A model generated the notes under the pieces. The model was given only the letters and a program-made list of their open reading frames with translations, searched no databases and had not been told where the DNA came from. The position numbers and the translations under genes were made by a program. Shown piece by piece: positions 5,607-28,199 of a stretch of 64,000 nt of DNA (position 1 is the first letter of the stretch; every line of letters begins with the position of its first letter). The DNA comes from Rathayibacter sp. VKM Ac-2857 (GTDB lineage Bacteria > Actinomycetota > Actinomycetes > Actinomycetales > Microbacteriaceae), in contig NZ_JABMLE010000001.1 in assembly GCF_013205025.1 (NCBI RefSeq), positions 496,001-560,000 of the forward strand. The letters are read 5' to 3'.

Positions 5607-6911
5607 ATGATCCGCCGCGTCGCCGCGCTGCTCGGGTCTCCGACGGCGCGCAGCTCCTCGAACGCCGCTCTCGAGCGCCTCGTCTCGCGGGGCACGAGCG
5701 CGGTGGTCGGCCTCGTCGTCGCCGTCGTCGTCTCCCCCGCGGAGGCGGGCGTCTCCGCGACGGCCTTCCTCGCGCTCACCCTCCTCCAGGAGGTCGGGGA
5801 GAACACGATGCGCCAGCTCGGGGTCGAGCTGTGGCGGCGGGACGGAGGCGCGGCCCTCGTCCGGCGCTCGGCCGTGCTGATCGCCTGCGGAGGAGCAGCG
5901 GTCATGGCGGCGGTGATCGGCACCCTGCTCGCGACGTCCGCCGCGTCCCCCACTCAGGCCCTGGCCCTCCTGCCGTTCGTCGCCGTCGCGGCGCTCCAGG
6001 GCGCGAGCATCTCCGCGGTGACCCGCGCCCAGTTCGACGGCCGCTGGGCCTCGATCTCGCGCAGCCAGGCCGTCGGCAGCCTCGTCTCGGTCGTCGTGTG
6101 CGTCCCGCTCGCTCCCGTCATCGGCATCGCGGCGGCCTCGCTGCAGACCTGCGTGACCGAGGGGATCCTCCTCCTGCTGCTGAGGCGGACCGGGACGGCG
6201 CCCGTTCCGGACCTGCCCCGGCGGCCGGTCCTCCGCGACCACGTGCTGCCGTCGATGCAGAGCAACCTCTTCGGCTGGCTGCAGGGCCAGACCGAGCGGG
6301 TCCTCGTCGCGGTCCTCGCCGGCGCCACGACGCTCGGCCTCTACTCGATCGCGAGCCAGATCGCCCGCGCCGTCACGGACGCCGTCGTCCTCGGGCTCAC
6401 CAACGTGCTCCGGTCTCGGCTGGCGACGGCGGGCACCGAGGCGGAGCGCCGTGCGGTGCTCCGCTCGATCCTGTCGCAGGCGATGGGCGCCGCTCTGACC
6501 GTCCAGGCGACCATGATCGCGCTCGATCTCCTGGTGCTCGGCCGGATCCTCGACGCGTCCTGGCATCCGGCGCTGCTGATCGTGCCGGTTCTCGCGATCT
6601 CGTCCGTCCCACTGGCCTGCATCTGGTGCGCGTCCTCCTACCTGATCGTCCGGGGCCGGGCGGGCGTCCTCCTACCCTGGCACGGAGTCGGCGTCGGACT
6701 GGGGGTCGTAGTCGGAGTCGCCCTCGCCCACGACCTGCTCCTCGGCGCCTGCGCGGCCGTCGCGCGGGACGCCGTCGCCCTGGCGGGACGGCTCCCCTTC
6801 GTCGCGCAGGACGTCGGCCGCCCCTTCCTCCTCGCCGTCGCGGTCTGCAGCGCGATCGGCGCCGTCGTGGGAGCGGCCGGCGTCGGACTCGCGCTCCTGC
6901 AGTACCGGTGA
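5607..6911 (+). CDS. Polysaccharide flippase, Wzx-like (first set)
   Basis: A 434-residue membrane protein with about 12 hydrophobic segments, resembling the MOP-superfamily polysaccharide transporters (Wzx) that flip undecaprenyl-linked repeat units across the membrane. Family-like features are an N-terminal helix pair after SNAALERLVSRGTSAVVGLV, the central amphipathic stretch LPSMQSNLFGWLQGQTERVL, and the following LYSIASQIARAVTDAVVLGL, reminiscent of the seventh helix of Wzx proteins. ATG 5607 is preferred over an upstream in-frame start because GCGGGAGG precedes it. It is the first gene of a plus-strand run with the polymerase and two glycosyltransferases. The exact substrate is unknown. 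Confidence 0.75.
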   Translation: MIRRVAALLGSPTARSSSNAALERLVSRGTSAVVGLVVAVVVSPAEAGVSATAFLALTLLQEVGENTMRQLGVELWRRDGGAALVRRSAVLIACGGAAVMAAVIGTLLATSAASPTQALALLPFVAVAALQGASISAVTRAQFDGRWASISRSQAVGSLVSVVVCVPLAPVIGIAAASLQTCVTEGILLLLLRRTGTAPVPDLPRRPVLRDHVLPSMQSNLFGWLQGQTERVLVAVLAGATTLGLYSIASQIARAVTDAVVLGLTNVLRSRLATAGTEAERRAVLRSILSQAMGAALTVQATMIALDLLVLGRILDASWHPALLIVPVLAISSVPLACIWCASSYLIVRGRAGVLLPWHGVGVGLGVVVGVALAHDLLLGACAAVARDAVALAGRLPFVAQDVGRPFLLAVAVCSAIGAVVGAAGVGLALLQYR

Positions 6912-6966: not shown

Positions 6967-8460
6967 ATGGCTGCACCCCCGGCCCCTCCCCTCCCCCGGT
7001 CGGTCCCGCGACGGCCGACCGCGGGCTGGTACCTCGCCCTGCTCGTCCTGCTCCTCGGCGGAGCGGTCTTCTGGATCGCGACCGGCGACGTCCAGGTCCC
7101 GCTGCTCGCGGCAGGCGCCGCGATCGTGCTGGTCGTCGCTCGGATCCTGTCTCCCGCCGCCGCGGCGATCCTCCTGGTCGTCCTCTACGCGGTCGTTCCC
7201 TTCGACTACCTCCCGGCACCGCTGCCCCTCCGGGTGCTCAGCCCCCTCCTCCTGCTCGCGGCGCTCCTCGCCGTCGCGACCGGAGCGCCCCCGCCCCCGT
7301 GGCTCCGCGGGATCGCGCTGCTGCCGGCGTTCACCTTCGCGCTGTACGCCCTGCTGATCCCGATCCTGCGGCCGCACGGGCAGCTGGCGACCGTCCTCGC
7401 CACGACCGCCGTGCTGATCCTCGCCCTGATCGCGATCCCGCTCCGGATGAGCGGCCCCTCCGTCTTCGGGCCGCTGACAGCCGCACTCCTCGTGGTCGCC
7501 GCCGTCCTGGCCGTGCTCGGGACGGTGGAGGCCGCGACGCGGTCGAACGCCTACGCCGCGATCTACGCCGCGGCCCCCTACCCGCTGACGCAGGAGTGGA
7601 GCGTCTACCGCATCCTGACGACGCTGGGCCATCCGCTCGTGAACAGCACGTTCTTCGCGTCGGTCGGCTCGCTCGCCTTCGGCCTGTTCCTCCGAGGGCG
7701 CCGCCCGGGCGCTCTCCTCGCCTTCGCGGCCTGCTGCACCGCCGTGCTCCTCACCGCCTCCCGCAGTGGAGTGGCGGCGCTCGGCACCGGCACGGCGGTC
7801 GCCGTCGGTCTCACCGTCCTCCGGCTGACGGGGAGCCGCTTCGTCCGGCTCGCTCTCGCCGTCGTGCCGCTCGCCGTGATCCTGGCGATCGTCGGGCCGG
7901 AGGTGCTCGATGCACGGTCCTCCAGTCAGGAGGGGCGGCTCTCCGTCGAAGTGCGCGACCTCGTCCTGCGGATCGGACTGAGGCTGCTGCCCACGGAGTC
8001 GGGGATCTTCGGATCCGGAGGCGGGCTCTCGAGCACCGTCTTCGAGAACAACGGCGGGCGGCACTACGCGCTCGAGAGCAGTCTCTGGCAGTTGATCCTC
8101 AGCTACGGCGTCATCGGTGCGGTCCTGCTGCTCGGCCACCTGCTGATCGTGCTCCTGCGCTCGATCGCCCGCGGCGCGATCGCCGGTCCCGCGATGCTGG
8201 TCGCCTGGGCGGTCTCCGCCTCCGCCTTCAACCTCCTCGAGTCCGCTCCGGCCGCGCTGATCGTCCCGGCCACGGCGATCCTGCTCACCCTCTCCGAGGC
8301 GCGAGCGGAGACGGAGCGCCTCGACCCGGTCGAGCCGTCCCCGGAGGACGGGAGCGACTCGACACGGATCGCACCGCGCTCGTCCCCGACGGCGCGCGCG
8401 GCGCGCCAGCCGCAGACGAGAGAGCGCCGCGCCCCGCCGACCGCCGAGCGGTCTTGCTAG
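6967..8460 (+). CDS. O-antigen polymerase/ligase family protein, Wzy-like (first set)
   Basis: A 497-residue polytopic membrane protein with about 11-12 hydrophobic helices. A long outward loop carries TTLGHPLVNSTFFASVG and a second conserved stretch carries ALESSLWQLILSYGVIGAV. Both recur in the second polymerase of this block (LGHPLVTST and [14 protein letters not shown]), which supports a shared O-antigen ligase/polymerase (WaaL/Wzy_C) family. It probably joins lipid-linked repeat units on the outer side of the membrane. The last 60 residues are an Arg/Pro/Ser-rich cytoplasmic tail. ATG 6967 is supported by GAAGGAAG about eight bases upstream. It follows the flippase by 55 bases. Confidence 0.8.
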   Translation: MAAPPAPPLPRSVPRRPTAGWYLALLVLLLGGAVFWIATGDVQVPLLAAGAAIVLVVARILSPAAAAILLVVLYAVVPFDYLPAPLPLRVLSPLLLLAALLAVATGAPPPPWLRGIALLPAFTFALYALLIPILRPHGQLATVLATTAVLILALIAIPLRMSGPSVFGPLTAALLVVAAVLAVLGTVEAATRSNAYAAIYAAAPYPLTQEWSVYRILTTLGHPLVNSTFFASVGSLAFGLFLRGRRPGALLAFAACCTAVLLTASRSGVAALGTGTAVAVGLTVLRLTGSRFVRLALAVVPLAVILAIVGPEVLDARSSSQEGRLSVEVRDLVLRIGLRLLPTESGIFGSGGGLSSTVFENNGGRHYALESSLWQLILSYGVIGAVLLLGHLLIVLLRSIARGAIAGPAMLVAWAVSASAFNLLESAPAALIVPATAILLTLSEARAETERLDPVEPSPEDGSDSTRIAPRSSPTARAARQPQTRERRAPPTAERSC

Positions 8461-8512: not shown

Positions 8513-9745
8513 ATGGAACCGACGCGTCGCTGGCTGGTCGCCACGACCGAGTACGCGGGGCTCACGCCCTACACCGGAGGGATCGGCCGCGGCTTCGCCT
8601 CGCTGCTGCCCGCGCTCGTGCGAGCGGGGGTGCAGGTCGATCTCGTCGTCTTCCACTGCGATCCCCCTCTCGAGGGCTTCGATCCGGAGGGCGTCCGGCT
8701 CCTCGAGTACGTCCGCCTGCGGCGCCGGCCGGCCGTCGGGCAGCTCCTCCGCAGGGCACTCCACCTGAGGGCCCTCGTGGTCCGCTCCCGCTACGACGTG
8801 GTCCTCCTCGCCGAGTGGGAGGGGATCGGGGCGCTGCTCCCCCGGCGAGCGCCGCTCCTGACCAACCTGGCGACCGGATTCCGCATCGCGGACTGGATCG
8901 CCGGCCCGGCGACGCGAGGGCGCACGCTGCGCACGCGACTCGTCATCGCTCTGCAGAAGCGCTTCGAGACGCGCCAGATGACGCGGTCGAGGGGACTCGT
9001 GCCGATCTCGCGCGCCGTCCGGGACTGGTACGCGGCCCGGATCCCGGCGCTCCCGCCCTCGGTCGTGGTGCGCAACTGCATCGACGTGCCGGCCGTGCGG
9101 ACGAGCGCGCGGACCAGCGCCCTCCCGGACGGCTGGCCGGCGAGACGCGGCCCCGTCGTCCTCTTCCTCGGCCGCCTCGAGCGGCGGAAGGGCGTCCTGA
9201 CTGCGATGCAGGCCTTCGACGACCTGGCGCGGTCCCGTCCGGACGTCTCCTTCGTCTTCGCGGGGTCGTTCTGCTTCCTCGAGCCGACCAGGGAGGAGCT
9301 GCTCGCCCTGGTCGCCGACGAGCACCACGACCGCGTCACCTTCCTCGGTCACGTCGGCGGCGGGGAGGTCCACGCCGCGATCAGGGCCGCGACCGTCGTC
9401 ACCTGCCCGTCGCGCTGGGAGGGCTTCGGCAACGCCGCGCTCGAGGTGAAGGCCGTGGGCACCCCGCTCGTCGTGACCACCGGGAGCGGCTTCGACGACT
9501 TCTGCGAGGACGGGGTGGACGCGCTGATGGTGCCGCGCGACGACCGCGTCGCGCTGGCCGCTGCGATCGCGCGCCTGCTCGACGAGCCCGAGCTGCGGGA
9601 GCGGCTGACCGAGCACGCGTCGAGCGGGATCGACGCGTTCACCGCGGACGCGGTGGCACCCGACCTCCTCGCGGCCGCGGAGCAGCTGCTCGGTCGGGAC
9701 CGCCGGGTCGCGGGCGGACCTCGCTCTCCGGACGAGCGCCGATGA
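8513..9745 (+). CDS. Glycosyltransferase family 4-type
   Basis: A 410-residue GT-B fold glycosyltransferase. The N-terminal half has TEYAGLTPYTGGIGRGFASL, the glycine-rich acceptor-side loop. The C-terminal half starts with VVLFLGRLERRKGVLTAM, typical of GT4, and ends with the nucleotide-sugar site CPSRWEGFGNAALEVKAVGTPLVVT, whose E-x7-E pattern is visible. No signal peptide or membrane helix is present, so it should act at the inner face of the membrane on a lipid-linked acceptor. Donor and acceptor cannot be deduced. ATG 8513 follows CGAGGAG. Its stop overlaps the next start (ATGA), so the two are likely co-translated. Confidence 0.9.
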   Translation: MEPTRRWLVATTEYAGLTPYTGGIGRGFASLLPALVRAGVQVDLVVFHCDPPLEGFDPEGVRLLEYVRLRRRPAVGQLLRRALHLRALVVRSRYDVVLLAEWEGIGALLPRRAPLLTNLATGFRIADWIAGPATRGRTLRTRLVIALQKRFETRQMTRSRGLVPISRAVRDWYAARIPALPPSVVVRNCIDVPAVRTSARTSALPDGWPARRGPVVLFLGRLERRKGVLTAMQAFDDLARSRPDVSFVFAGSFCFLEPTREELLALVADEHHDRVTFLGHVGGGEVHAAIRAATVVTCPSRWEGFGNAALEVKAVGTPLVVTTGSGFDDFCEDGVDALMVPRDDRVALAAAIARLLDEPELRERLTEHASSGIDAFTADAVAPDLLAAAEQLLGRDRRVAGGPRSPDERR

Positions 9746-10797
9746 TCGGTGATCGCGCACCGCGGCCGCGCTCGATCACGATCGGCGTCCCCGTCTACGA
9801 CGTCTCCGCCTACGTCGAGCGCTGCCTCACCTCCCTCTGGGCCCTCACCGTCCCCTCCGGCTGCTCGGTGCAGGTGATCGTCGTCGACGACGGGAGTCCC
9901 GACGACTCGATGGCGAAGGTGTCGGCCGCGATCGCGCACGCTCCGCCCGCGTTCTCGATCGAGGTCGTCGTGCACGAGAGCAATCGCGGGCTGGCGGAGG
10001 CGCGGAACACGATCCTCGAGCACGCCACCGGGGAGGTGCTCTGGTTCGTCGACTCGGACGACCACGTCGATCCGGACATGCTCGCCGCGATGGTCGCCGC
10101 GATGTCGGCCGAGGTGGACGTCGTCGTCACCGGCCTGCGCGCGATCGGCGAGTCGGGCGAGCGGCTCGACGCCGCGCCGATGCCGTACACCGGGCCGCGG
10201 CTGTGGACGGGCTGCGACGCCGCGGTGGAGCTCTTCGAGTTCCGCCTGTGGGCCTCGCTCTGGAACAAGCTCGTCCGGCGCGAGCTCTACGACGGCCTGC
10301 GCTTCCCCCGCGCCCGCTGCTACGAGGACACCGCGCTGATGGCCGTCCTGCTCGCCCGCGCGCGAACGGTCTCGTTCCTCGATCGCGAGCTCTACGTCTA
10401 CTCCGTCCGGCCGGGGGCGATCACGGACGGCCTGAGCGTCGATCTCCTCGACCTGTCGAGGAACGTCCGCCACGTCGTCGGACTGCTCGAGAGCGAGTTC
10501 CCGCTCCTCGCCGCGCACCCCTCGGTCGGCGCCTACACGGCGCGGGCCGCGCACCTGGCCCCGCTGCGTCTCGTGGCTCTTCACCCGGAGGCGGTCGACG
10601 TCGGGCGGACGATCGAGCGCGAGGTCTCGGCCGACGTCCGCGCGGCCGACGTCCTCCGCGTGGCCCGCGGCGGGCACCTCGCGGTCGCCGTCGCCCTCGC
10701 GGTCATCAGGGTGTCGCCGTCCGCCTACGTCCGGGTGCTCCGCCTCGCTGCGACGACGCGCGTCCTGCGCCTCCTGCGCCGATTCCGGCGCGTCTGA
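9742..10797 (+). CDS. Glycosyltransferase family 2
   Basis: A 351-residue GT-A fold transferase. The motifs are clear: SITIGVPVYDVSAYVERCL at the N-terminus, VIVVDDGSPDDS for the first nucleotide-binding aspartates, NRGLAEARNTILEHATGEVLWFVDSDDHVDP with the metal-binding DSDD, and the downstream catalytic-side RARCYEDTALMAVLLARA with its ED pair. The C-terminal third is helical and ends in a basic stretch (LRLLRRFRRV) that may touch the membrane. It starts inside the stop codon of the preceding glycosyltransferase and ends the first plus-strand operon. Sugar specificity is unknown. Confidence 0.9.
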   Translation: MIGDRAPRPRSITIGVPVYDVSAYVERCLTSLWALTVPSGCSVQVIVVDDGSPDDSMAKVSAAIAHAPPAFSIEVVVHESNRGLAEARNTILEHATGEVLWFVDSDDHVDPDMLAAMVAAMSAEVDVVVTGLRAIGESGERLDAAPMPYTGPRLWTGCDAAVELFEFRLWASLWNKLVRRELYDGLRFPRARCYEDTALMAVLLARARTVSFLDRELYVYSVRPGAITDGLSVDLLDLSRNVRHVVGLLESEFPLLAAHPSVGAYTARAAHLAPLRLVALHPEAVDVGRTIEREVSADVRAADVLRVARGGHLAVAVALAVIRVSPSAYVRVLRLAATTRVLRLLRRFRRV

Positions 10798-10872
10798 CTG
10801 GGTCGAGGCGGCGCTGCGCGCCACTCGGCCGACGTCGGCGACCCCGCTCGCAGGAGCCCGCCGGCGCGCGGA

Positions 10873-10878
10873 TAGGGT
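10873..10878 (+). promoter_or_regulatory. -10 box of a probable leaderless promoter
   Basis: TAGGGT ends seven bases before ATG 10886, the same arrangement seen before the lipoprotein at 47066 and dapD at 62355. With the usual 6-8 base distance from the -10 box to the transcription start, the mRNA would begin at or next to the start codon. There is no ribosome-binding site. No good -35 hexamer is visible. Confidence 0.5.
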
Positions 10879-10885
10879 CCCCGCC

Positions 10886-12025
10886 ATGCGCAGATCCCTC
10901 GCCGTCCTCGGCACGCGCGGCTACCCCAGCTACTACGGCGGCTTCGAGACCGCCGTCCGCCGGCTCGCCCCCCACCTCGTCGACGCCGGCTGGGACGTCA
11001 CCGTCTACGGGCGCCCCGGAGCGACCGTCGACGACGCGCCCGACCGGGACCACCGCGTCCGCACCGTCGTCACCTCGGGCCGGGACACGCGCTCCCTGAG
11101 CACGCTGAGCCACGGGCTGAGCGCGACCAGGGACGCGGTGCGGCGCGCGCCCGATGCGGCACTGGTGATGAACGCGGCGAACGGGCTCTTCCTGCCGCTG
11201 CTCGTCCGCGCCGGCATCCCGACCCTCGTCAACGTGGACGGCATGGAGTGGGAGCGGGAGAAGTGGGGACCGCTGGCCCGGTCCGTCTTCCGGACCGGCG
11301 CGCGGATGACCGCGAGGCACGCCACCGAGCTCGCCTTCGACGCCCGCGAGATCGCCCGCCGGTGGGGCACCGAGTTCCAGCGCGACGGCGTCCTCCTCTC
11401 CTACGGCGGCGACGTCCCGCCCGCCCTGCCGGTGGAGCCCGGACTGCGGCACCGCTCGTACGCCCTGATGGTGGCCCGGCTCGTGCCGGAGAACACCGTT
11501 GCGGAGTTCTTCGCCGCCGCTCCCGAGATCGCCCGGACGCATGACGTGGTCATCGTCGGATCCTCCGGCTACGGCGGCGCGCTCGACGAGCAGGCCGCCC
11601 GCCTCGCGGCGTCGCACGAGCGCATCCACCACCTCGGCCACCTCAGCGACGACGCCCGGCTGTTCTCGCTGTGGCAGCACGCCGGCGCCTGCTTCCACGG
11701 TCACAGCGTCGGCGGCACCAATCCGGCACTGGTCCAGGCGATGGCCTGCGGCGCCCCGATCGTCGCCCGCGACACCGTCTACAACCGCGAGGTCCTCGGC
11801 GAGCGCGGCGTGTTCGTCGAGCCGGACGCCGCGTCGATCGCCGCCGCGGTCCGCTGGATGCTCCGCTCTCCCGACCAGCAGGACGCGACCGGCGCGGACG
11901 CCCTGGAGCGCGCCCGGGTGCACTACTCCTGGGAGGACGTGTGCTCCGGCTACGAGCGGACGCTCGCCGCGCTCGCCGACGGCGCCCGGAGACCGTCCTC
12001 CCGGCCGCTGCAGGCGCACCGGTGA
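10886..12025 (+). CDS. Glycosyltransferase, DUF1972/rhamnosyltransferase-like GT4
   Basis: A 379-residue GT-B enzyme. It begins with AVLGTRGYPSYYGGFETAVR, the hallmark of the DUF1972 N-terminal domain found in rhamnosyl- and related GT4 transferases of exopolysaccharide clusters. The central hinge has YALMVARLVPENTVAEFF, and the donor site has FHGHSVGGTNPALVQAMACGAPIVARDT with the conserved glycine and polar residues. It is soluble and probably acts at the membrane face. A TAGGGT box seven bases before the ATG indicates a leaderless transcript separate from the upstream operon. It overlaps the next gene by GTGA. The presence of rmlB in the block is compatible with a dTDP-rhamnose donor, but this is inference. 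Confidence 0.88.
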   Translation: MRRSLAVLGTRGYPSYYGGFETAVRRLAPHLVDAGWDVTVYGRPGATVDDAPDRDHRVRTVVTSGRDTRSLSTLSHGLSATRDAVRRAPDAALVMNAANGLFLPLLVRAGIPTLVNVDGMEWEREKWGPLARSVFRTGARMTARHATELAFDAREIARRWGTEFQRDGVLLSYGGDVPPALPVEPGLRHRSYALMVARLVPENTVAEFFAAAPEIARTHDVVIVGSSGYGGALDEQAARLAASHERIHHLGHLSDDARLFSLWQHAGACFHGHSVGGTNPALVQAMACGAPIVARDTVYNREVLGERGVFVEPDAASIAAAVRWMLRSPDQQDATGADALERARVHYSWEDVCSGYERTLAALADGARRPSSRPLQAHR

Positions 12026-13347
12026 GGCCGGCCGTGCGCGGCGTCGTCGAGGAACACCGACCCGCGGTGCCGGCGCCGCGACGCGCGCTCGTCGTCGCGA
12101 GTCCGTACCCCGAGGGGGCGGCGAGGGCCCTGGTCGCCGGCGCTGCGGCTCGAGGCGCCCTGGCCGGGGAGATCGTGCCCCGGACGGGACTGGTCGCTCG
12201 CGCCGCCTCGGTCCCTCTCCCCTCCGCGGCGGCCCGCACGCCGTTCGCGAGGCGGATGCGCGCGCTCCGGGACCGGTACGCGTCGCGCCCCGCGCACCGG
12301 GTCGAGCGGGTGTCGCACCTGGCGGAGCTCGTGCTCCGCGCGGGGCACCGGCTGCCCTCTCCCGGCCTCGTGCTGCGGGCGTCCTACCTGTCCAAGATCC
12401 TCTTCGATCGGGCGGCGGCATCCGTCGACCTCGCCGACGACAGGGTCGTGCTCGGCTTCCCGGGCGCCTGCCTCGCGCTCTTCCGCGCCCATCCCGACGC
12501 CCGGCGGGTCTTCCACGCCGTCGACGCGCACCCGCGTGCGCACAACCGTGAGCTCCTCCGGCACTTCTCCCGCCGCCGGAGCCGGGCCGAGCGCTACCCC
12601 GCGCGCCTGGTCCGCCGGATCGAGAAGGAGCTGCGGCTGGCCGACGTCGTGCTCACGCCGTCGACGATCGTCTCGGAGCAGATGGCCCGGTACGGCGTCG
12701 ACCGCTCGAAGATCGTCGAGATCCCCTACGGCGTGAGCCTGGCCGGCTTCACCCCCGAGGGTCCGGCCGCCGAGAGGGACCCGGAGCGGCCTCGGCTCGT
12801 CTGCGCGGCCCACGTCTCCCGCCGGAAGGGCGTCCCCCAGCTCCTCGACGCCGTCCGAGGACTGCCGGTGGACCTCGTCCTGGCCGGCGGCGTCTTCGAT
12901 CGGCGGATCCTCCGCGGCGCCCCGTCGCAGGTGATCGTCACCGGCCCGCTGTCCGCGGACGAGCTCGCGCGGGAGTTCCGGGCCGCGGACGCGTTCGTCC
13001 TCCCGACGCTGGAGGACGCCTGCTCGCTGGTCGTCGCCGAAGCCGCGGCCTGCGGGCTCCCGGTGATCACGACCGACGCCAACGGCGCCGCCGCCCTCCT
13101 CGATCCGGTGCACGACACGGTCCTGCCCTCCGGAGACGTCGACGCGCTCAGGGAGGCGCTCGGTCGCGTGCAGCGGCTCGATCGCGCGACACGGCTGGCG
13201 ATCGCCGATCGGGTGCGCTGCACAGCGACGGCGATCACGGACTGGAGCACCTACGCGGAGCGGGTGCTCGACGTCGTCCTCGCCGACGAGGGCACCCGCA
13301 CGGAACCCGTTCGGATGGTCGGGACGTCGACTCCGAGAGCGAGCTGA
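12022..13347 (+). CDS. Glycosyltransferase family 4-type
   Basis: A 441-residue glycosyltransferase. The C-terminal half shows the GT4 pattern: KIVEIPYGVSLAGFTPEG, then RLVCAAHVSRRKGVPQLLDA and the donor-site segment FVLPTLEDACSLVVAEAAACGLPVITT with the E-x7-E type spacing. The N-terminal half (RALVVASPYPEGAARALVAG) is less conserved. GTG 12022 overlaps the TGA of the preceding gene (GTGA), the usual coupling in this cluster; no better ATG exists upstream in the right position. It belongs to the second plus-strand operon. Specificity is unknown. Confidence 0.85.
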   Translation: MRPAVRGVVEEHRPAVPAPRRALVVASPYPEGAARALVAGAAARGALAGEIVPRTGLVARAASVPLPSAAARTPFARRMRALRDRYASRPAHRVERVSHLAELVLRAGHRLPSPGLVLRASYLSKILFDRAAASVDLADDRVVLGFPGACLALFRAHPDARRVFHAVDAHPRAHNRELLRHFSRRRSRAERYPARLVRRIEKELRLADVVLTPSTIVSEQMARYGVDRSKIVEIPYGVSLAGFTPEGPAAERDPERPRLVCAAHVSRRKGVPQLLDAVRGLPVDLVLAGGVFDRRILRGAPSQVIVTGPLSADELAREFRAADAFVLPTLEDACSLVVAEAAACGLPVITTDANGAAALLDPVHDTVLPSGDVDALREALGRVQRLDRATRLAIADRVRCTATAITDWSTYAERVLDVVLADEGTRTEPVRMVGTSTPRAS

Positions 13348-13482
13348 CAGATCCTCGTGCGGACGCGAGTTCTGCTCATGTTCTCGTGTACGGTGTCGTT
13401 CCTGTCCTCCTGCGCGAGAGGACCACGCCGAGACCGGCGGCCCGCCGCGCTCCCGCTCCCGACCGAAGAAGAGATCACCGCC

Positions 13483-14484
13483 ATGCTCCGACGCCTCGAC
13501 GGCACCGCACCCAGGGTCATCGCCGTGACCGTGACCTCCGGGAAGCGCAGCGTGATGCTCGCCCGCGTCGTCGAGGCGGCGCTGCTCGCGGGCGCCGAGT
13601 CGGTGCACGTCGTCTTCAGCGGGAACGGCGGGCAGGAGCGCGTGCTGCGCGGACTGCTCGCGTCCGACCTCGACGCGCGAGTGAGCGCCACCGTCCTCCC
13701 CAACGACCTCGGCACCGCCGGCGGCTTCCGCGCGGCGATCGAGCACTGCCGCACGCAGGAGCCGGACTACGCCTGGCTCCTCGAGGACGACACCGTCCCG
13801 CGGCCGGACGCGCTCGCCGTGCTCCTGGCCTCGCCGCAGGCCCTCGACCCGACGGCCTGCCACGCGAGCCTGCGCGAGACGGACTTCTACCAGTCCCAGC
13901 TCGTCACCGGCCGGCCCGCCGCCGAGGTGTTCCCGAGCCCCGGCCGCTTCCTCGACAACGACGTCCGCCGGCTGCTCGACCGCCGGGCCGGCGGCCGCTG
14001 CGGCAGCCGCCCGCAGGAGCCGATCGCGGTGCCGGTCGCCCCCTACGGCGGGCTGCTGGTCTCTCGGGCCGCGCTCTGCGTGATCGAGCCGCCGCGCCAG
14101 GAGTTCGTCCTCCGGGGCGACGACCGGGAGTGGACGCAGCGGATCACGCGGGGCGGCTTCCCGATCCACCTGCACCCGCTGAGCCGGATCGACGATCTCG
14201 ACGCGTGCCGGGAGGCGGCCGACCGCGCGTCCGCGACCGACGTCCTCCTGCACTCCTCGAGCACGCACGAGCTCTACCTCGCCGTGCGGAACCGGACCGC
14301 TCTGGATCTCGAGCTGGCGAGGACGGACGGACGTCGCGCCGTGCGCGTGTTCGCCCTCAACCGCGGTCTCTACTGCGCCGCTCTGGCGGCGCGCGGCCTC
14401 CGCTGGGGCCGGGTCGCGACGACCGGCACGATCCTCCGCGGCGTCGTCTCGGGCAGCCGGGGGCGCTTCCTCTCCGCACGCTGA
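13483..14484 (+). CDS. Glycosyltransferase family 2, galactofuranosyltransferase-like
   Basis: A 333-residue GT-A transferase. The N-terminus VIAVTVTSGKRSVMLARVVEAAL and the spacing to LPNDLGTAGGFRAAIEHCRTQ are like GlfT-type and rhamnosyl GT2 proteins. YAWLLEDDTVPRPDAL carries the metal-binding acidic triad, and FVLRGDDREWTQRI resembles the D-D-x-E catalytic segment of galactofuranosyltransferases. This resemblance is by motif only. ATG 13483 is chosen because it directly begins the conserved domain and has GAAGAAGAG upstream; an in-frame start at 13357 would add 42 residues of non-family sequence. It ends the second plus-strand operon. Confidence 0.8.
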   Translation: MLRRLDGTAPRVIAVTVTSGKRSVMLARVVEAALLAGAESVHVVFSGNGGQERVLRGLLASDLDARVSATVLPNDLGTAGGFRAAIEHCRTQEPDYAWLLEDDTVPRPDALAVLLASPQALDPTACHASLRETDFYQSQLVTGRPAAEVFPSPGRFLDNDVRRLLDRRAGGRCGSRPQEPIAVPVAPYGGLLVSRAALCVIEPPRQEFVLRGDDREWTQRITRGGFPIHLHPLSRIDDLDACREAADRASATDVLLHSSSTHELYLAVRNRTALDLELARTDGRRAVRVFALNRGLYCAALAARGLRWGRVATTGTILRGVVSGSRGRFLSAR

Positions 14485-14530: not shown

Positions 14531-15850
14531 TCAGGCCGTCAGGAGTCCGAGCTCGACGAGGTCGTCGAGCAGCCGGTCGATCTCCGCCTGCGCGCAGCCG
14601 CCCCCTGCGTCGTCCAGGTCCTCCGCCGCTCGGACCGTCGCGGCGGCCTCGGCCCTCGACCGGCATCCGCACTCGGCGAACCGCTCCCAGAGCAGCCGGG
14701 CCGACGCCTGCAGCACGACCGGCTGCGCCCCGACGGGAGCACCGAGGGGCAGGAGGTAGAGCCCCTGCCGCATCGCCACGGTCGCCACCGCGGGTCGCGC
14801 CGGCGGGCGCCGGGGAGAGGTCGAGCGGTCCTCCGCACCAGGGCTCGCCGCCGGAGCCGACCGCGGCGCGTCCGCCGCATCGGAGGAAGGCGGTGCCTCC
14901 TCCGGCGCGACGGAGGGCGGGGCGGACGCACCTGCGACGGGCCACGCGGCGCGGCGGACCGCGGCGAGGTCCCGGACCGCGGGCGGCAGGGCGGCGGCCG
15001 CTGCCGCGAGGCGCCGCACCCGGAGCCGCAGCCGAGAGGAGGCCGTCCGCGGCGCCAGCGGGTGATCGATCGCGAGGTCCCGACCGGCGGGGAGCATCGC
15101 GCGCCGGAGCAGACCGAGCCGGGACGCGAGGGTGGGCGCCTCGGCGAGCGCCAGCAGCCAGTCCCCGGTGCGGCTCAACCGCCGCGTGCGCAGCCGCCAG
15201 AGCGCGTACTCCCGACTCGGACGGGCGGGCAGCGCGGCGTCCACTCCGATCCGGGCGAGGAACGGCGCGATCGGCTCGAGGCAGCACAGCTCCGCCGCGA
15301 GAGCGGCCACCGCCTCCTCCCGGCCGCGCGCCGCCACCGCGGCGACGAGCTCGTCCAGCTCCTCCGCGCTGCGCTGCTGGTAGAGGGCGCGCAGGCTGTG
15401 CAGGGCGGAGACGAGGACCGCCGCATCGACGCCGCTCGCCCGCACCGGCACTCCGGCGACCTCGATCTCGCAGCGGGTGCGCCAGAGCACCTCGAAGGCG
15501 CGCTGCGGACCGACGAAGAAGCCGGGCCAGCTGGTGTGCACGTCGATGTCGCACGGCCAGGAGGGGTGAAGGAGGGTCACCGAGTGGGTGACGAGCGCGC
15601 GGTGCGCGGCGGACCCCGGCCGGACCGACCAGCCGCGCTCGGCGAGCAGCGCGAGGAGCCGGTCCGCGTCGGACGGGTCGACGAGCACGTCCGCGTCGCT
15701 GGAGGGATGGGGACGGCGGATCCGGTGCGCGTCGGCGATCGGGCCCTTGATGAACAGGGCGCGGATCCCTGCGCCGCGGGCGAGGTCGTCCACCAAGGCG
15801 TGGACCAGACCGACGGCGGCGTCCAGCGGGAGGTCGGCGGTGGGTCGCAC
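14531..15850 (-). CDS. NTP_transf_5-like nucleotidyltransferase fused to a PqqD-like domain
   Basis: A 439-residue two-domain protein. Residues about 1-325 resemble the putative nucleotidyltransferase family PF14907: RALFIKGPIADAHRI, then PSSDADVLVDPSDADRLLAL, where the S-D-x-D forms the expected metal site, and LLHPSWPCDIDVHTSWPGFF. A Pro/Ala/Ser-rich linker follows, then a PqqD-like (RiPP recognition element type) domain of about 80 residues (YLLPLGAPVGAQPVVLQASA through LLDDLVELGLL). The separate genes at 32840 and 33139 encode the same two modules. The GTG start at 15850 is chosen because homology begins just after it; an upstream ATG in the same frame is possible. Function is unknown. 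Confidence 0.75.
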   Translation of the reverse strand: MRPTADLPLDAAVGLVHALVDDLARGAGIRALFIKGPIADAHRIRRPHPSSDADVLVDPSDADRLLALLAERGWSVRPGSAAHRALVTHSVTLLHPSWPCDIDVHTSWPGFFVGPQRAFEVLWRTRCEIEVAGVPVRASGVDAAVLVSALHSLRALYQQRSAEELDELVAAVAARGREEAVAALAAELCCLEPIAPFLARIGVDAALPARPSREYALWRLRTRRLSRTGDWLLALAEAPTLASRLGLLRRAMLPAGRDLAIDHPLAPRTASSRLRLRVRRLAAAAAALPPAVRDLAAVRRAAWPVAGASAPPSVAPEEAPPSSDAADAPRSAPAASPGAEDRSTSPRRPPARPAVATVAMRQGLYLLPLGAPVGAQPVVLQASARLLWERFAECGCRSRAEAAATVRAAEDLDDAGGGCAQAEIDRLLDDLVELGLLTA

Positions 15851-16040: not shown

Positions 16041-17099
<1,059 letters not shown>

Positions 17100-23294: not shown

Positions 23295-23816
23295 ATGCCT
23301 CTTCTCTCCAGCCTCACGAAGCGCCTCCCGCCGCAGTGGCGGTGGCGGATCCTCTCCCGCACCCTGGGCCGCTCGGCCGCCGCCCGGGCGCTCGGTGTCC
23401 AGGTCGGAGAGGGCTGCCGGATCCTCTCCTGCCAGGTCCGCTCGGAGTACGACCTCCTGAGCATCGGCGACCGCGTGACCGTCAGCAGCGAGGTCCTCTT
23501 CATCACCCACGACGGCGCGGGCTGGCTCGCCAACGACGAGCGGGGGCGGCGGTACCGCGTGTCCCCGATCACCATCGGCGACGACTCCTTCATCGGCGCC
23601 CGGTCGATCGTCATGCCGGGAGTCAGCATCGGCTCGGGGTGCATCGTCGCCGCCGGCGCCGTGGTCACGAAGTCGGTCCCCTCCGGCGCGATCGTGGGGG
23701 GCAACCCCGCGAGGATCATCGGCGAGACACCCGTGTTCCTCGAGAAGGCGCTGCGCGAATGGCCGACGACTCGTCAGGTGACTCGGACGCCGCGCCCCGC
23801 CCTGGATCGCCGATGA
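23295..23816 (+). CDS. Left-handed beta-helix (hexapeptide) acyltransferase
   Basis: A 173-residue protein of the LbH acyltransferase superfamily, in the maltose/galactoside or serine O-acetyltransferase group. Hexapeptide turns are visible: [48 protein letters not shown], and the C-terminal [20 protein letters not shown] followed by [10 protein letters not shown], typical of the acetyl-CoA site. The FITHDGAGW segment carries a histidine in the position of the usual catalytic one. It probably acetylates a sugar of the polysaccharide. ATG 23295 follows AAGGACC. Its last 101 bases overlap the 3' end of the convergent polymerase gene. Confidence 0.88.
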
Positions 23817-25029
23817 TCTGACCGGCTCGGAACATCAGCGGGGCCAGGAACGCGAGCAGCGCGGGGTTCACGTCGATGGCGCTGAAGCCGGAGAGACTGA
23901 CCGCGAACGCGACGATCCCCGCCGCGACCGCGGCGTCTCCGCGCTTCGACACCCGGAGCACGACGACCACGATCGCCGTCAGCCCGAGGGCGGCGAGAGG
24001 CACGCCGAGCGAGAGCAGGAGCTGGAAGACGGAGTTCTCGAGCGGACCGTCGAAGATCGAGGAGAACTCCGCCGCGGAATTGCTCGGACCGAGACCTATC
24101 AGCCAGTTGTCGTCGATCATGTCGAGAGCCACGTCGGTCGACTGCTCCCGGTAATCCGAGGACTTCACTCCACCCGAGGATTCATTGCGCTGATCGAGCA
24201 GCGGGGAATTGGTCACGACTCCGAGAAAGCCCAGTGCGGACACCATGAGGAAGAACGCGGTGATCCTCCGGGTGCGCTGCGACGGCGAGGAGCCGAAGAG
24301 GAGCACGAGACAGCCCAGGGCGAGTCCGATCGCGATGGCGAGGACACCGGTCCGCGAGACGGCGAGGACGACCGCGGCCCCGGAACCGGCGAGGGCGGCG
24401 ATCCGGAGCCACCGGTTCTTGTCCGAGCCGAAGAGAGCGATCATCGCGCAGACCGTCGCGACGGTGGAGGTCACGAGCGGATGCCCGAGGCTCGTCCGGG
24501 TGCGGAACACCGACCAGACCTTCTCGGTGACGTCGTAGGAGAAGAGCGAGGACCACGGGTTGAAGCCCGCGACGAAGTCCAGCACGGCGAGGGCGCCGAC
24601 GAAGACGCCGATCCAGAGGTAGGCCTTCTGCGTCGACGCCCAGGTCTCCTCGCGACGGGTCCGCCCGTAGAGGTAGGGCAGGATCACGCAGACGAGCGCG
24701 ACGATCACCCACGCGACGGACAGGAACGGGTCGAGGCCGAGTGCCACCGAGACCGCCAGCGCCCCGAGGATCGGGATCCACAGCAGCGTGCCGACGCGCA
24801 CCGGCGCGGCGGGCGCGTCACGGGTGCTCAGCACCGTCCTGATCATCCAGACGGCGAGGATGATCACCGCCGGGGAGAAGTACCGGCCGATGAGCCGGGG
24901 CACGTCCATGTAGCCGACGGGCAGGACGACGAGCACCGCGAGAGCGAGGGCGGGCATGAAGCGGCGCGGCATGAACATCAGCACGATCGCACCGACGATG
25001 CCGACGAAGCCGAGTGCGACGAGGGTCAT
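23716..25029 (-). CDS. O-antigen polymerase/ligase family protein, Wzy-like (second set)
   Basis: A 437-residue polytopic membrane protein with about 12 helices, beginning [19 protein letters not shown]. The loop [21 protein letters not shown] and the later [20 protein letters not shown] then [17 protein letters not shown] mirror the first polymerase of the block, so both belong to the same O-antigen ligase/polymerase family. It probably polymerises the repeat unit exported by the second flippase. The ATG overlaps the stop of the upstream glycosyltransferase (ATGA). It is the last gene of an eight-gene minus-strand operon that starts at 32453. The C-terminal 35 residues are encoded on DNA shared with the convergent acyltransferase. 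Confidence 0.82.
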
Positions 25030-26015
25030 GCCAGCACGTCGTTCGACTCGACCCCGAGGCCGCTGCCGAGGGGGCGCACCCGGCGCGAGCTCGCCACCGC
25101 GAGGTCGCTCAGGCTCACTTCGTCCGCCTCGCGCACCAGGGCCAGGTCGCGGTCGGCCAGGAGCCGGGCGATCTGCGCCTGGTGGTCGTCGATGTGCTCG
25201 CCGTTCCGGGAGCGCCGGATGACCAGCACCGGGTAGATGCCGAGCTCCAGCAACCGCAGGACGCTGCCGACGCCCGCGTGGCTGACGACCACGTCGGCGT
25301 CGATCGCCGACTGATCGAAGCGCGCACTCGAGAAGAAATCGACCACCTCGCCCGAGAGACCCGGCACGGGCGGCGTGACACCGAGCTGCCAGATCGAGCG
25401 CTCGCCGACCAGAGGGGCCAGCGCCGCGACCGGTCGCGGGAACGGATACTTCTTGATCGTCCCGAGGGTCACGAAGACGCTCGGGTCCGCGACTCTCTCG
25501 CACGCGGTGTAGGACTCGAAGGAGTCGAGCACCGAGCCGCGGTACTCCCACCTCGCGTCGGACCAGTGCTCGTGCTGCGTCCACGCGGTGCGCGCGAGGC
25601 GAGTCCGAGCGACCAGGCGGCCGGTCATCGACGGACCGTCGACGCGCGAGACGCTCTCGATGTAGTGGGTGGGGATCCGGAGGGCACGCGCGGCGAGGAA
25701 CGCCGGTGCTGCGATCGCCGCACCGGTGCTCACCACGCCGTCGAAGCCACCGCCGGCGAGGATCCGGCGGAAGCGCGGGAGGGCGCCCAGCACCCCCCGG
25801 ACGTCGCGCTGGACGATCTCCGGGATGTAGTGGTGCGGCTCTCCCTCGAGCAGTCCGTCGGCCTGAGGCGAATCGAAGGTCACCCACTCGGAGGTGCTGT
25901 CGATCGACGACCCCCGGGAGAGCCGCCACAGCTGTTCGAGGTGACCGCCCGTCGAGGCCGCGAGGAGGAGGCGCGGGGGTCGGGTCGTGGGAAACGCGTC
26001 GGCGAGATCGATCAT
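25026..26015 (-). CDS. GT28/EpsF-like glycosyltransferase (Alg13/Alg14-type fusion)
   Basis: A 329-residue soluble glycosyltransferase with MurG-like architecture. The N-terminal half has PPRLLLAASTGGHLEQLWRL, the Alg14/PssD signature, and VVSTGAAIAAPAFLAARAL. The C-terminal half has PSVFVTLGTIKKYPFPR and ADVVVSHAGVGSVLRLLELG, the Alg13/PssE donor-site signature, followed by PVLVIRRSRNGEHIDDHQAQ. In exopolysaccharide clusters these halves are often separate genes; here they form one chain. It probably adds glucuronic acid, GlcNAc or a similar sugar to the lipid-linked intermediate, but the donor is not evident. The ATG at 26015 overlaps the stop of the pyruvyltransferase gene. Confidence 0.85.
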   Translation of the reverse strand: MIDLADAFPTTRPPRLLLAASTGGHLEQLWRLSRGSSIDSTSEWVTFDSPQADGLLEGEPHHYIPEIVQRDVRGVLGALPRFRRILAGGGFDGVVSTGAAIAAPAFLAARALRIPTHYIESVSRVDGPSMTGRLVARTRLARTAWTQHEHWSDARWEYRGSVLDSFESYTACERVADPSVFVTLGTIKKYPFPRPVAALAPLVGERSIWQLGVTPPVPGLSGEVVDFFSSARFDQSAIDADVVVSHAGVGSVLRLLELGIYPVLVIRRSRNGEHIDDHQAQIARLLADRDLALVREADEVSLSDLAVASSRRVRPLGSGLGVESNDVLA

Positions 26016-27064
26016 GCTCGGGCCTCCAGGAGAGTGCGGACAGCGGTTCGGACGACGGCGAGCTGCTCCACCGCCCCCTGCAGCGCGTTCTGCTGCGAGG
26101 CGTCGGCGACGACGCTGCGGAGCGCGTCCGCGATGGCCTCCGTCGAGCGGCCCTTGGCGTCGAAGACGACGATCGGGATGCCCGCCGCGGCGAAGTGGCG
26201 CTCGATCTTGTCGGTCGGCGTATCGGCGATCGAGGCGACGGCGGCCCCTTCGGCGACGGCGACGATCAGGGCGTGCAGGCGATCGCTGACGACGAGGGCC
26301 GACTCCGCGAACGCGCGGCGGACCTCCTCCTCCTGCACCTTGTGCGAGCGGGAGCCCCACGCGACGTAGTCGGCGTCCCACTCTCCGGCGAGCTCCGCCA
26401 TCAGCGGTTCGTCCCGCTCCACCTGGGTCACCACGGTGAGACGGAGCCCGCGCTCCTCCGCGATGCGGGCGATCGCCTGCCGCCACTGCCGGGAGGGCGG
26501 CACCCGGTCGCCGCGCATCGTCACCGTCAAGCGCGTGCGCTCGGTCGAGGCGGCGTGCTCGGATCCCACCTGGCCGAAGCCGAGGTCCGGCATGACGCCG
26601 CCGTGGCCCAGCCGGTCGGCCGTGCGGACGTCGCGCCACATCGTGTAGTGGCTGAGTCCGAGGGTCGAGCGGAACACGGCCGTCGGCCAGCGGTCGAAGT
26701 TGCGGGACCCCGCTCCGACCCGGATGACCAGGCCGCCGCGCAGCCGAGTGGCGACGACCAGCGGGAGCAGACCGATGTGCTCCTTCAGACCGCGCCAGGT
26801 GAGCTGGATCTCCCCCGGCTTGTAGATGTAGGCGACGCACTCGCCGCGGCGGAGGCAGGCGCCGAGCTCGCGTGCCCAGCCGCCGACGCTCCGGTAGGTG
26901 ATCACGTCGGCGGGGAGGTCGAGCGCCTCGTCGTAGGAGGCGGGCGAGGCACCGACGTAGGCGTGCATCTCCCCCATGCCGCTCAGCCACTCGACGAGCT
27001 CACGCCGCAGGACGATGTCGCCGATGTTCTCGTACTGCCCGACCACGGGAACGAAGATCTTCAT
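26012..27064 (-). CDS. Polysaccharide pyruvyl transferase family protein
   Basis: A 350-residue protein of the PF04230 family, members of which transfer a pyruvyl group from phosphoenolpyruvate to a sugar as a ketal, adding negative charge to the polymer. The conserved N-terminal element is VPVVGQYENIGDIVLRRELV. Further family features are GGLVIRVGAGSRNFDRWP, VRTADRLG, VSDRLHALIVAVAEGAAVAS with the conserved SDRLHA histidine, and the end PTDKIERHF. It is soluble. ATG 27064 follows a GAGGTGAG ribosome-binding site. Its 3' end overlaps the next gene by four bases. Some family members have other functions, so pyruvylation is probable, not proven. Confidence 0.85.
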   Translation of the reverse strand: MKIFVPVVGQYENIGDIVLRRELVEWLSGMGEMHAYVGASPASYDEALDLPADVITYRSVGGWARELGACLRRGECVAYIYKPGEIQLTWRGLKEHIGLLPLVVATRLRGGLVIRVGAGSRNFDRWPTAVFRSTLGLSHYTMWRDVRTADRLGHGGVMPDLGFGQVGSEHAASTERTRLTVTMRGDRVPPSRQWRQAIARIAEERGLRLTVVTQVERDEPLMAELAGEWDADYVAWGSRSHKVQEEEVRRAFAESALVVSDRLHALIVAVAEGAAVASIADTPTDKIERHFAAAGIPIVVFDAKGRSTEAIADALRSVVADASQQNALQGAVEQLAVVRTAVRTLLEARA

Positions 27065-27075
27065 ACTCACCTCTT

Positions 27076-28176
27076 CTACTTGCTCAGGATCGTGTCGACG
27101 ATGAGGGGGGCGTTGAGCTCCTCCACGGAGGCGCGGGCGACCGCCGCGGACGCAGCGCTGGCGCGCTCCACCGCCGCGGCGAGCTCCGCAGGATCGTCGC
27201 GAGAGGCGCGAGCGCCGTTCACTCCCTCGACGATGAGCGCGTTCGGGTCGCCACCGGGAGTGGTCGCCACCGGGAGTCCGGTGGCCAGCGCTTCGACGAT
27301 CGAGCGCGAGAAGCCCTCGAACCGGGAGCTCATCAGCAGCAGGTCGTGCTCGCGCATCAGCGCGCCGACCTCGCCCTTGGGCACCGCGCCCCGGAAGTCG
27401 ACGCGGTGCGCGATCCCGGCGGCGGCGGCGGCCTCTCGCATGCGGCCCTCGAGCGTGCCGCTGCCGGCCACCGTGAGGCGGAAGCGCTCGTGGAGCAGAG
27501 CGAAGGCGGCGATCGCGAGCTCGGGGTTCTTCGCCGGCTCGATCCGGCAGGCCCAGAGCACGTTCACCTTCTCGCTGCTCTCGCTCGCGCTCGGGTAGAA
27601 CTCGGTCGGGTCGAACCAGGTCGGCGAGAAGTGCACGGAGGCGGACTGCCGGCGCAGCCGCTCGGCGCCGCCGCTGCTGAAGATGACGACGGCGCGCGAC
27701 TGCCGGACGACACGCCGCTCGAGGAAGCGGTAGAGCCCGCGCGCCCGCCGGAAGAACGAGACGCTGCCCTGCTTGAGATTCGCGTCGCCGCTGCTGTGCA
27801 TGAACTGCACGTGCGGGGTTCCGCGGAAGTGCCGGAGCGCGACGGCACCGACGTTCACGCGGTGGGTCTGCACCGTGTCGACGTCGGCGGTCGGCAGGAA
27901 CTTCTTCAGCCCGCGGGCCAGGCGGACCGAGTGCGGGACACGCCGGGTCAGGTCCGCGTGGTCGAGGCGGACCACCGGCATGAAGTCGAAGCGGCGACCG
28001 CCGATCTCGTACTCCTTCCACTCGCCGAGCACCTTGTCGCCGATCGCGTCGACGCCCGCGATGCGGATGATCTCGGTGTCGGGAGCGAACTTGACGAGGC
28101 CGCGGATGCAGGTGTCGATACCGCCGGGCTTGGGGCGCACCGGGTCGAACTGCTCGACGATCAGGCGAGTGCTCAT
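27076..28176 (-). CDS. Glycosyltransferase family 4-type
   Basis: A 366-residue GT-B transferase. It begins RLIVEQFDPVRPKPGGIDTC with a glycine-rich loop, has VNVLWACRIEPAKNPELAIA at the start of the C-terminal domain, and LLLMSSRFEGFSRSIVEALA followed by TGLPVATTPGG in the donor site (E-x7-E). ATG 28176 is preferred to an in-frame ATG at 28203 because GAAGGAAT lies at proper spacing before it. The upstream flippase stops at 28200, so about 23 bases separate the two genes. Donor and acceptor are unknown. Confidence 0.87.
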   Translation of the reverse strand: MSTRLIVEQFDPVRPKPGGIDTCIRGLVKFAPDTEIIRIAGVDAIGDKVLGEWKEYEIGGRRFDFMPVVRLDHADLTRRVPHSVRLARGLKKFLPTADVDTVQTHRVNVGAVALRHFRGTPHVQFMHSSGDANLKQGSVSFFRRARGLYRFLERRVVRQSRAVVIFSSGGAERLRRQSASVHFSPTWFDPTEFYPSASESSEKVNVLWACRIEPAKNPELAIAAFALLHERFRLTVAGSGTLEGRMREAAAAAGIAHRVDFRGAVPKGEVGALMREHDLLLMSSRFEGFSRSIVEALATGLPVATTPGGDPNALIVEGVNGARASRDDPAELAAAVERASAASAAVARASVEELNAPLIVDTILSK

Positions 28177-28199
28177 CTGGGGATTCCTTCTCTGGGGTG

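What the first reader, a model, noticed from the sequence alone, without database searches (positions are those of the whole stretch)
14531..15850. The same two modules fused into one protein inside the block
This gene encodes the nucleotidyltransferase domain followed, after a Pro/Ser/Ala linker, by a PqqD-like domain. Its halves match the separate genes at 33139 and 32840 by motif (IKGP, SSDxDVLVDP, HPxWPCDIDVH; VPLREP/LPLGAP and the C-terminal LGLL/RGLVL region). A fusion and a split pair in one locus is strong evidence that the two domains act together. The order of domains in the fusion is reversed compared with gene order, so a simple stop-codon change cannot explain one from the other. 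One copy lies with each of the two assembly lines, which suggests that each line needs its own unit.
Basis: partly seen in the sequence, partly recalled or inferred. Interest (0 to 1): 0.75.

Follow-up and report, generated by a model that had tools for sequence, protein, structure and literature searches.

The report
Peptide-guided transferase paired with exopolysaccharide lines
This gene joins a sugar- or nucleotide-transfer enzyme to a peptide-gripping domain, and it seems to belong to a little-studied bacterial machine that may tag exported proteins and is encoded near genes for making slime polysaccharides.

Summary
Window 14531-15850 (-) encodes an NTP_transf_5 nucleotidyltransferase (NT, PF14907), a Pro/Ser/Ala-rich linker and a C-terminal PqqD-type RiPP recognition element (RRE). 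The split pair (32840-34077) is homologous but an old, separate lineage. I found 13 non-redundant fusions in Rathayibacter, Klugiella, Flexivirga and Dermacoccus; one origin is not rejected.

'Reversed order' proves nothing: both unfused gene orders occur in relatives. 'One unit per assembly line' is well supported: 24 of 25 NT genes in 15 genomes of the genus lie within 10 kb of a Wzy gene, each a different one.

The module looks like one arm of a larger system. An HprK-like kinase, usually carrying PqqD, is present in 15 of 15 genomes. Across 297 genomes of the order this kinase co-occurs (53 both, 5 and 5 alone, 234 neither) with Tat-type exported proteins whose signal peptide carries AWxxPx[VI] and a Ser at W+17, a layout like precursors of linear polyphosphorylated peptides (YxxPxV, phosphoserine at Y+18).

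I propose that the fusion's RRE recruits such proteins and its NT modifies the phosphorylated serine. Substrate and chemistry are inferred, not shown.

The parts
14531..15850 (-). NTP_transf_5 nucleotidyltransferase fused to a C-terminal PqqD-type RRE, 439 aa
14972..15832 (-). nucleotidyltransferase domain; K35, G36, D52, D54, D101, D103, H105 invariant in a 28-row alignment
14798..14971 (-). Pro/Ser/Ala-rich linker (limits approximate), poorly conserved
14540..14797 (-). PqqD/RRE domain
32840..33142 (+). free-standing PqqD/RRE protein of the second line (PF05402, 29.1 bits)
33139..34077 (+). free-standing NTP_transf_5 protein of the second line, overlapping the PqqD gene by 4 bases (PF14907, 38.5 bits)
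5607..6911 (+). line B: Polysacc_synt flippase
6967..8460 (+). line B: Wzy_C-like polymerase/ligase (24 bits, below cut-off 31.7)
8513..14484 (+). line B: glycosyltransferase genes (8513, 10886, 12034, 13483 matched by Pfam; 9742 not scanned)
16095..17099 (+). NAD-dependent sugar epimerase/dehydratase (RmlB-like is my reading)
23716..25029 (-). line A: Wzy_C
25026..32453 (-). line A: GT28-C-like, pyruvyltransferase, GT4, MurJ-type flippase, GT4, hexapeptide transferase, epimerase

Best explanation
The fusion is an RRE-guided transferase, the line-specific arm of a three-part system tied to Wzy-dependent exopolysaccharide synthesis. (1) Shown by sequence: the C-terminal domain is an RRE of the lasso/PqqD type and the N-terminal domain is a nucleotidyltransferase with its acidic residues conserved. 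(2) Shown by genome comparison: each of the 15 genomes of the genus also has an HprK-like kinase, usually fused to a PqqD domain, in an operon with Wzc and UDP-glucose dehydrogenase and mostly an initiating sugar transferase and a phosphatase. (3) Inferred from co-occurrence, co-location and motif layout: the substrates are exported proteins with a Tat-type signal. The RREs grip W-x-x-P-x-[VI] in the signal peptide, the kinase phosphorylates the serine at W+17 (next to the expected cleavage site), and the NTase then adds a sugar or nucleotidyl group to that phosphate. (4) Speculative: because each Wzy line has its own NTase, the added group is matched to that line's polysaccharide and could link or prime the protein to it.
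For: RRE. NTase residues. One NT per Wzy: 24 of 25, 24 distinct Wzy, at most about 3% of a genome lies that close to one. Kinase in 15 of 15 genomes; synteny in 14 fetched loci of the genus: Wzc 14, UGD 14, WbaP 12, LMW-PTP 12, PqqD detected on the kinase 13; own genome. Kinase x AWxxP: 53/5/5/234 of 297 genomes; after taking out 28 listed genomes of the main seed genera 35/4/5/225; genera 21/0/1/73 of 95; class sample 13/5/0/278 of 296, in which the 8 kinase genomes from outside the order, all of one family, are all AWxxP-positive. An AWxxP gene within 15 kb of the kinase in 27 of 49 genomes (9 of 31 without the main seed genera), against about 3% expected per genome (computed for those 27). 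Layout: P+3 46/46, P+12 45/46, Ser W+17 44/46; in a set chosen without regard to Ser 51/56, background 42/550. LPP precursors: YxxPxV, Ser at Y+18, phosphorylated by the HprK-like LppK; paeninodin RREs favour Trp (PMC13381572, sections 6-8, 12). NTase homologue PsmN linked by knock-out to hexose on phosphoserine (PMC9266682, passages).
Against: Neither an AWxxP match nor a kinase match of the window's genome falls in the window, and most of the 16 AWxxP matches of that genome are scattered. Not every kinase genome has AWxxP and the reverse (5 and 5). The NT correlates with kinase and AWxxP less tightly than those two do with each other (62 genomes with the NT subtype: 49 with kinase, 13 without; 9 kinase genomes without it). 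LppN deletion gave no visible change in the LPP system (PMC13381572, section 7), and the review leaves open that PsmN only nucleotidylates (PMC9266682, passages). Pairwise dN/dS of the fused PqqD domain is weak evidence of constraint (0.43-0.90). Both profiles, AWxxP and kinase, were seeded from loci of this system. No structure prediction and no biochemistry were possible.
Confidence: 0.55

Rival explanations
1. The NT-PqqD modules make a small RiPP (an LPP- or lasso-like peptide) encoded in or near each exopolysaccharide locus, and the AWxxP proteins are unrelated passengers of the same lineages.
For: LPP and paeninodin clusters sit in capsule loci with the same enzyme set (PMC13381572, section 6). 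My search for precursors was limited to my own predicted genes of 35-250 aa in the window, L010, L011 and L065-L092, with a simple motif; the 54 named loci were not searched this way.
Against: In that set the only short-gene hits seen in more than one locus were AWxxP-type proteins and the hexapeptide transferase; the rest were single cases. The kinase/AWxxP co-occurrence and co-location would need another cause.
Confidence: 0.2
2. The NTase acts on a polysaccharide precursor or lipid-linked sugar, and the PqqD domain only docks it to an assembly-line protein such as Wzc or Wzy.
For: Tight pairing of NT with Wzy and of the kinase with Wzc.
Against: The RRE domains are closest among solved structures to lasso leader-binding RREs. 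It does not explain the AWxxP association.
Confidence: 0.2
3. The fused C-terminal domain is degenerate and does nothing; the NTase works alone.
For: Low Pfam score, pairwise dN/dS up to 0.90.
Against: The domain is kept in 13 fusions of four genera and matches RREs as a family.
Confidence: 0.05

Closest known systems
Linear polyphosphorylated peptides (LPP; LppA/K/B/N/S/D), Bacillota (PMC13381572)
   Same: PqqD-type RRE, HprK-like kinase and NTP transferase in capsular polysaccharide loci; aromatic-xxP-x-V motif followed by a Ser 17-18 residues on, near a signal-peptidase-type cleavage site
   Different: LPP precursors are 35-200 aa with a YxxPxVLxHQ leader, the Ser is residue 3 after the cut, and there is a dedicated SpI peptidase and transporter; here the candidate substrates are proteins with Tat-type signals, the RRE is often fused to the NTase or the kinase, and no such peptidase or transporter was seen in the scanned genes
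Paeninodin/pseudomycoidin lasso peptides (PadeK, PsmK, PsmN; PMC9266682 passages)
   Same: HprK-like kinase on Ser, NTase homologue linked to hexose on the phosphate; WxxP leader in paeninodin-type peptides (PMC13381572)
   Different: no lasso cyclase among the window genes scanned; no lasso precursor seen
NCBIfam HPr-rel-A system (TIGR04352 HprK_rel_A, TIGR04353 PqqD_rel_X)
   Same: kinase plus PqqD protein; weak matches
   Different: far below curated cut-offs (31.4 vs 200 for L010's kinase, 15.3 vs 35 bits for L011's PqqD part)
PEP-CTERM/exosortase (PMC1569441, seen as start of abstract in a search listing)
   Same: a class of exported proteins tied to exopolysaccharide loci and found by co-occurrence with its processing enzyme
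   Different: signal is N-terminal and Tat-type here; the enzymes are a kinase and an NTase

Membership tests
NTP_transf_5 (PF14907) | score above Pfam gathering cut-off | tested here: met
   fusion 32.7 bits vs 31.2; split 38.5
NTP_transf_5 (PF14907) | conserved acidic residues of the nucleotidyltransferase fold | tested here: met
   D52, D54, D101, D103 invariant in 28 rows; that these are the catalytic ones is recalled from the pol-beta superfamily
PqqD (PF05402) | score above Pfam gathering cut-off | tested here: not met
   fused domain 14.8 vs 23.4 bits; the split PqqD meets it with 29.1
RiPP recognition elements | homology to solved RREs | tested here: met
   13 fused domains as a profile: TbiB1 E 1.5e-7, TfuB1 1.9e-4, PbaB1 4.4e-3; LppB itself only 0.17
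RiPP recognition elements | binds a leader peptide | not testable with these tools
   candidate ligand motif only; structure tool switched off
LPP | RRE, HprK-like kinase and NTP transferase together in a polysaccharide locus | tested here: met
   L010 of the same genome; not in the window itself, which has no kinase match
LPP | precursor with YxxPxVLxHQxIxFETxxS | tested here: inconclusive
   WxxPx[VI] with Ser at +17 instead
LPP | SpI-like peptidase and MsbA-like transporter in the cluster | tested here: not met
   none among the 10 genes of L010 and 9 of L011 scanned with Pfam; the rest of the genome was not searched
HPr-rel-A (TIGR04352/TIGR04353) | scores above curated cut-offs | tested here: not met
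Lasso peptide cluster | macrolactam cyclase | tested here: not met
   no such match among the 27 window stretches scanned; not every window gene was scanned

The most novel reading that the evidence does not exclude
A new N-terminal protein-tagging system of Actinobacteria. Tat signal peptides double as RiPP-type leaders: RRE domains read W-x-x-P in the signal peptide, a kinase phosphorylates the serine that becomes the new N-terminus, and a set of RRE-guided NTases, one per Wzy exopolysaccharide line, decorates that phosphate so that surface proteins are joined to, or prime, a particular polysaccharide.
Probability: 0.3. Interest if true: 0.9.

Novelty: new variant of a known kind. Interest (0 to 1): 0.72.

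Why it matters
It gives the poorly understood NTP_transf_5/PqqD/HprK trio, known from capsule loci of Bacillota and seen here in Actinobacteria, a testable set of protein substrates and a predicted modified residue. If right, RiPP-style leader recognition works on whole exported proteins through their signal peptides, and exopolysaccharide lines have dedicated enzymes that tag surface proteins.

Tried and rejected
Rejected: recent duplication of the pair or fusion (window NTs 37% identical, in separate clades). Rejected: a kinase-free system (no kinase match in the window, but 15 of 15 genomes carry one). Rejected: generic Tat signals as the source of the motif (the profile has no match at E<=1e-3 in 239 of 297 genomes of the order). 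Led nowhere: NCBIfam on the fusion and split NT (no match); solved relatives of the NT (three matches at E about 0.4, not convincing); kinase profile against solved structures (326 matches, the 60 shown mostly short P-loop stretches of ABC proteins and the like). Not done: structures and complexes, a PqqD tree (too short and divergent), supplements of papers.

Choices that could bias counts. The thresholds of the 297-genome table (AWxxP E<=1e-3, kinase E<=1e-20) were set after seeing lists run at 0.01 and 1e-8. This dropped 7 weak AWxxP genomes (none with a kinase) and 6 weak kinase genomes (none with AWxxP). The first look scored at most 27 (AWxxP) or 9 (kinase) candidates per genome in those runs, so misses are possible. 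The class sample used these thresholds from the start, but five of its 13 kinase genomes and many of its negatives were already in the order sample; only the 8 of one family (7 of one genus) are new. In the test without seed genera only genomes that the lists name could be removed; members among the unlisted negatives stayed in, and both profiles hold rows from some further genera. The positions were typed from a list cut short by the tool, so 27 of 49 is a lower bound. The split of PF14907 into two subtypes was mine. In the trees two broken NT pieces were dropped and two other pieces of the same broken genes kept, and 11 duplicate loci were left out. The 78-row tree was a short search: the tree with all fusions held together scored better than the free one. 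The gene finder, linker limits and C-terminal anchor test were simple scripts of mine. Tests of co-occurrence ignore relatedness except at genus level.

Full report
WHAT IS THERE. The gene at 14531-15850 (-) encodes 439 residues from a GTG start behind GGAGAGG; the start region is the same in relative G009. Residues 25-195 match PF14907 (32.7 bits, cut-off 31.2) and residues 378-437 match PqqD weakly (14.8 bits, cut-off 23.4). NCBIfam has no match for the fusion at E<=0.1. The split pair, PqqD 32840-33142 and NT 33139-34077, passes the two Pfam cut-offs. The two NTs are 37% identical. The two PqqD domains show nothing in BLASTP but are related as families. Thirteen fused domains used as a profile find the lasso-peptide RREs TbiB1, TfuB1 and PbaB1 in the PDB.

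SURROUNDINGS. Line B (5607-14484, +) has a flippase, a Wzy_C-like protein and glycosyltransferases; the fusion is convergent to it. Line A (23716-32453, -) has Wzy_C, a pyruvyltransferase, glycosyltransferases, a MurJ-type flippase and an epimerase; the split pair is divergent from it. The genome holds a third NT (C1:1439486) in a third Wzy locus (L010). There it is followed by an HprK-like kinase fused to a PqqD domain, a secreted protein with a Tat-type signal on the other strand, and another PqqD.

RELATIVES. All 15 held genomes of the genus carry NT (14 above the cut-off), while 11 of 75 genera in a sample of 99 relatives match the fusion protein. Records with names and shared contig lengths place the window in Rathayibacter. 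Among 28 fetched loci, the window and L010, nine NTs are fused to PqqD, always NT first; among 54 named loci eight are, four of them the same as earlier ones. In total 13 non-redundant fusions lie in Rathayibacter, Klugiella, Flexivirga and Dermacoccus. On NT trees of 34 and 78 rows the fusion label needs two changes, and one clade is not rejected (p-AU 0.455 and 0.979); the second tree was a short search. Free-standing neighbours occur in both orders. The fusion is thus an old lineage of its own, not a recent product of the split pair.

ONE NTASE PER LINE. Of 25 NT sites in the 15 genomes, 24 lie within 10 kb of a Wzy_C match, each of a different one; the 25th (G005) is 2.9 kb from a contig start and its contig has no Wzy_C match. 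There are 94 Wzy_C matches in all, and at most about 3% of a genome lies that close to one. One further, broken NT in G003, found only with the fusion protein as query, is not in this count.

THE KINASE ARM. An HprK-like kinase (weak TIGR04352 match, 31.4 bits vs 200 in L010) is found in 15 of 15 genomes. In the window's genome one copy with a C-terminal PqqD sits between an initiating sugar transferase and a Wzc/Wzz-type protein, followed by a low-molecular-weight phosphatase and UDP-glucose dehydrogenase (L011). In the other 14 genomes of the genus, by BLASTP against L011's genes, kinase and Wzc are neighbours in 14, with UGD in 14, WbaP in 12, the phosphatase in 12, and the PqqD domain detected on the kinase in 13. 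All eight genomes of the genus in which I found a fusion therefore also have the kinase.

THE CANDIDATE SUBSTRATES. Loci with a kinase often carry genes for secreted proteins with an RR...AWxxP signal peptide: 23 of 31 loci with a kinase against 9 of 53 without by a loose pattern, duplicates between the two collections included. Of those 9, two look like noise and seven real; a similar pattern hit 11 reversed sequences. A 22-row profile and a kinase profile were run over the same 297 genomes of the order: both in 53, AWxxP alone in 5, kinase alone in 5, neither in 234. Without 28 listed genomes of the main seed genera: 35, 4, 5, 225. By genus: 21, 0, 1, 73. In a class-wide sample of 296: 13, 5, 0, 278, with four of the five AWxxP-only genomes weak (E above 1e-5); the 8 kinase genomes from outside the order belong to one family and all have AWxxP, one of them weakly. 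The nearest listed AWxxP gene is within 15 kb of a kinase in 27 of 49 genomes, or 9 of 31 without the main seed genera. PF14907 of the shorter-match subtype goes with the kinase in 49 of 62 genomes; a longer-match subtype (23 genomes) does so in 1. All 15 genomes of the genus have 5 to 36 AWxxP matches; the window's genome has 16, none in the window.

THE LAYOUT. In 46 profile matches from 43 loci, three of which are from the window's own genome, R-R, W and P+3 are invariant, P+12 holds in 45, and Ser at W+17 in 44 with the other two one residue later. Since the profile contains that Ser, I repeated this with a pattern that ignores it, over the earlier loci: Ser at W+17 in 51 of 56 sequences; of the other five, three are noise and two have Ser one residue away. 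Serine occurs at +17 from N-terminal tryptophans of predicted genes in 42 of 550 cases, and directly after A-x-A in 3 of 41 other signal-like N-termini. No LPXTG and no C-terminal membrane-like stretch was seen in the 46 by crude tests. The L010 protein is a choice-of-anchor G protein (NF033766, 100.6 bits, cut-off 45); four other AWxxP proteins had no NCBIfam match at E<=0.1.

WHAT IT WORKS LIKE. In LPP clusters of Bacillota an RRE, an HprK-like kinase and an NTP transferase sit in capsule loci. The precursor motif is YxxPxVLxHQxIxFETxxS; the RRE grips its Tyr and Pro, the kinase loads several phosphates on that Ser, and a signal-peptidase-like enzyme cuts so that the Ser becomes residue 3 (PMC13381572; abstract and sections 6, 7, 8 and 12 read). 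Paeninodin RREs favour Trp in that place (same paper). A wider RRE survey reports W/Y/LxxP/L/I recognition (PMC12710340, passages); its main text does not contain the word nucleotidyltransferase. PsmN, an NTase homologue, was tied by knock-out to hexose on the phosphorylated Ser of pseudomycoidin, though an indirect route was left open (PMC9266682, passages; the original paper is not held). The AWxxP signal peptide has the aromatic residue, P at +3, a branched residue at +5 and the Ser at +17 against +18. On this basis I propose that the fusion's RRE recruits AWxxP proteins before export and that its NTase modifies the phosphorylated serine. Shown: domains, co-occurrence, co-location, layout. 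Inferred: Tat export (from the RR motif), binding, phosphorylation, order of steps, what is transferred, and any link to polysaccharide.

NOVELTY. In the held library, searches listed no paper whose title or abstract start is about RRE or PqqD with Tat signals, or this kinase with such exported proteins. Several of these searches found more papers than they listed, and beyond PMC13381572, PMC9266682, PMC12710340, PMC7470986 and PMC10036551 (passages or sections) I saw listings only. I do not file the system as LPP: the SpI peptidase and transporter were not seen in the scanned neighbourhood, and the precursor motif differs. I rate it a new variant of RRE-kinase-NTase systems; the tagging-system reading would be new in kind.

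Noticed in passing
window 17155-22983: Between the two lines lie a large protein with fn3 and beta-helix matches (17309-21784, +) and a GH5 cellulase-like protein (21847-22983, -), perhaps matrix-related.
   Followed up: no
window 1-5276 and 34142-39211: The exopolysaccharide block sits between ATP synthase, a Glycos_transf_4 (TagO-like, recalled) and a Sua5 gene on one side and a release-factor gene on the other; in relatives L067, L069, L070, L076 and L082 NT loci border homologues of these flanks, which suggests a preferred site for such loci.
   Followed up: partly
L066:9728-10709; L084:9266-10405: NT copies in G007 and G003 are broken into two frames; described only.
   Followed up: no
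L108:7666-9087(-), L099:3-980, L141:8667-10223(-): Kinases followed by two PqqD domains in tandem.
   Followed up: no
G004 C1:626380-627052 and C1:40716-41220: Two extra kinase copies in G004, each matched in two pieces.
   Followed up: no
23 of 85 genomes: A second PF14907 subtype that matches nearly the whole profile; 1 of the 23 genomes has the kinase and none has AWxxP proteins.
   Followed up: partly
   Followed up: partly
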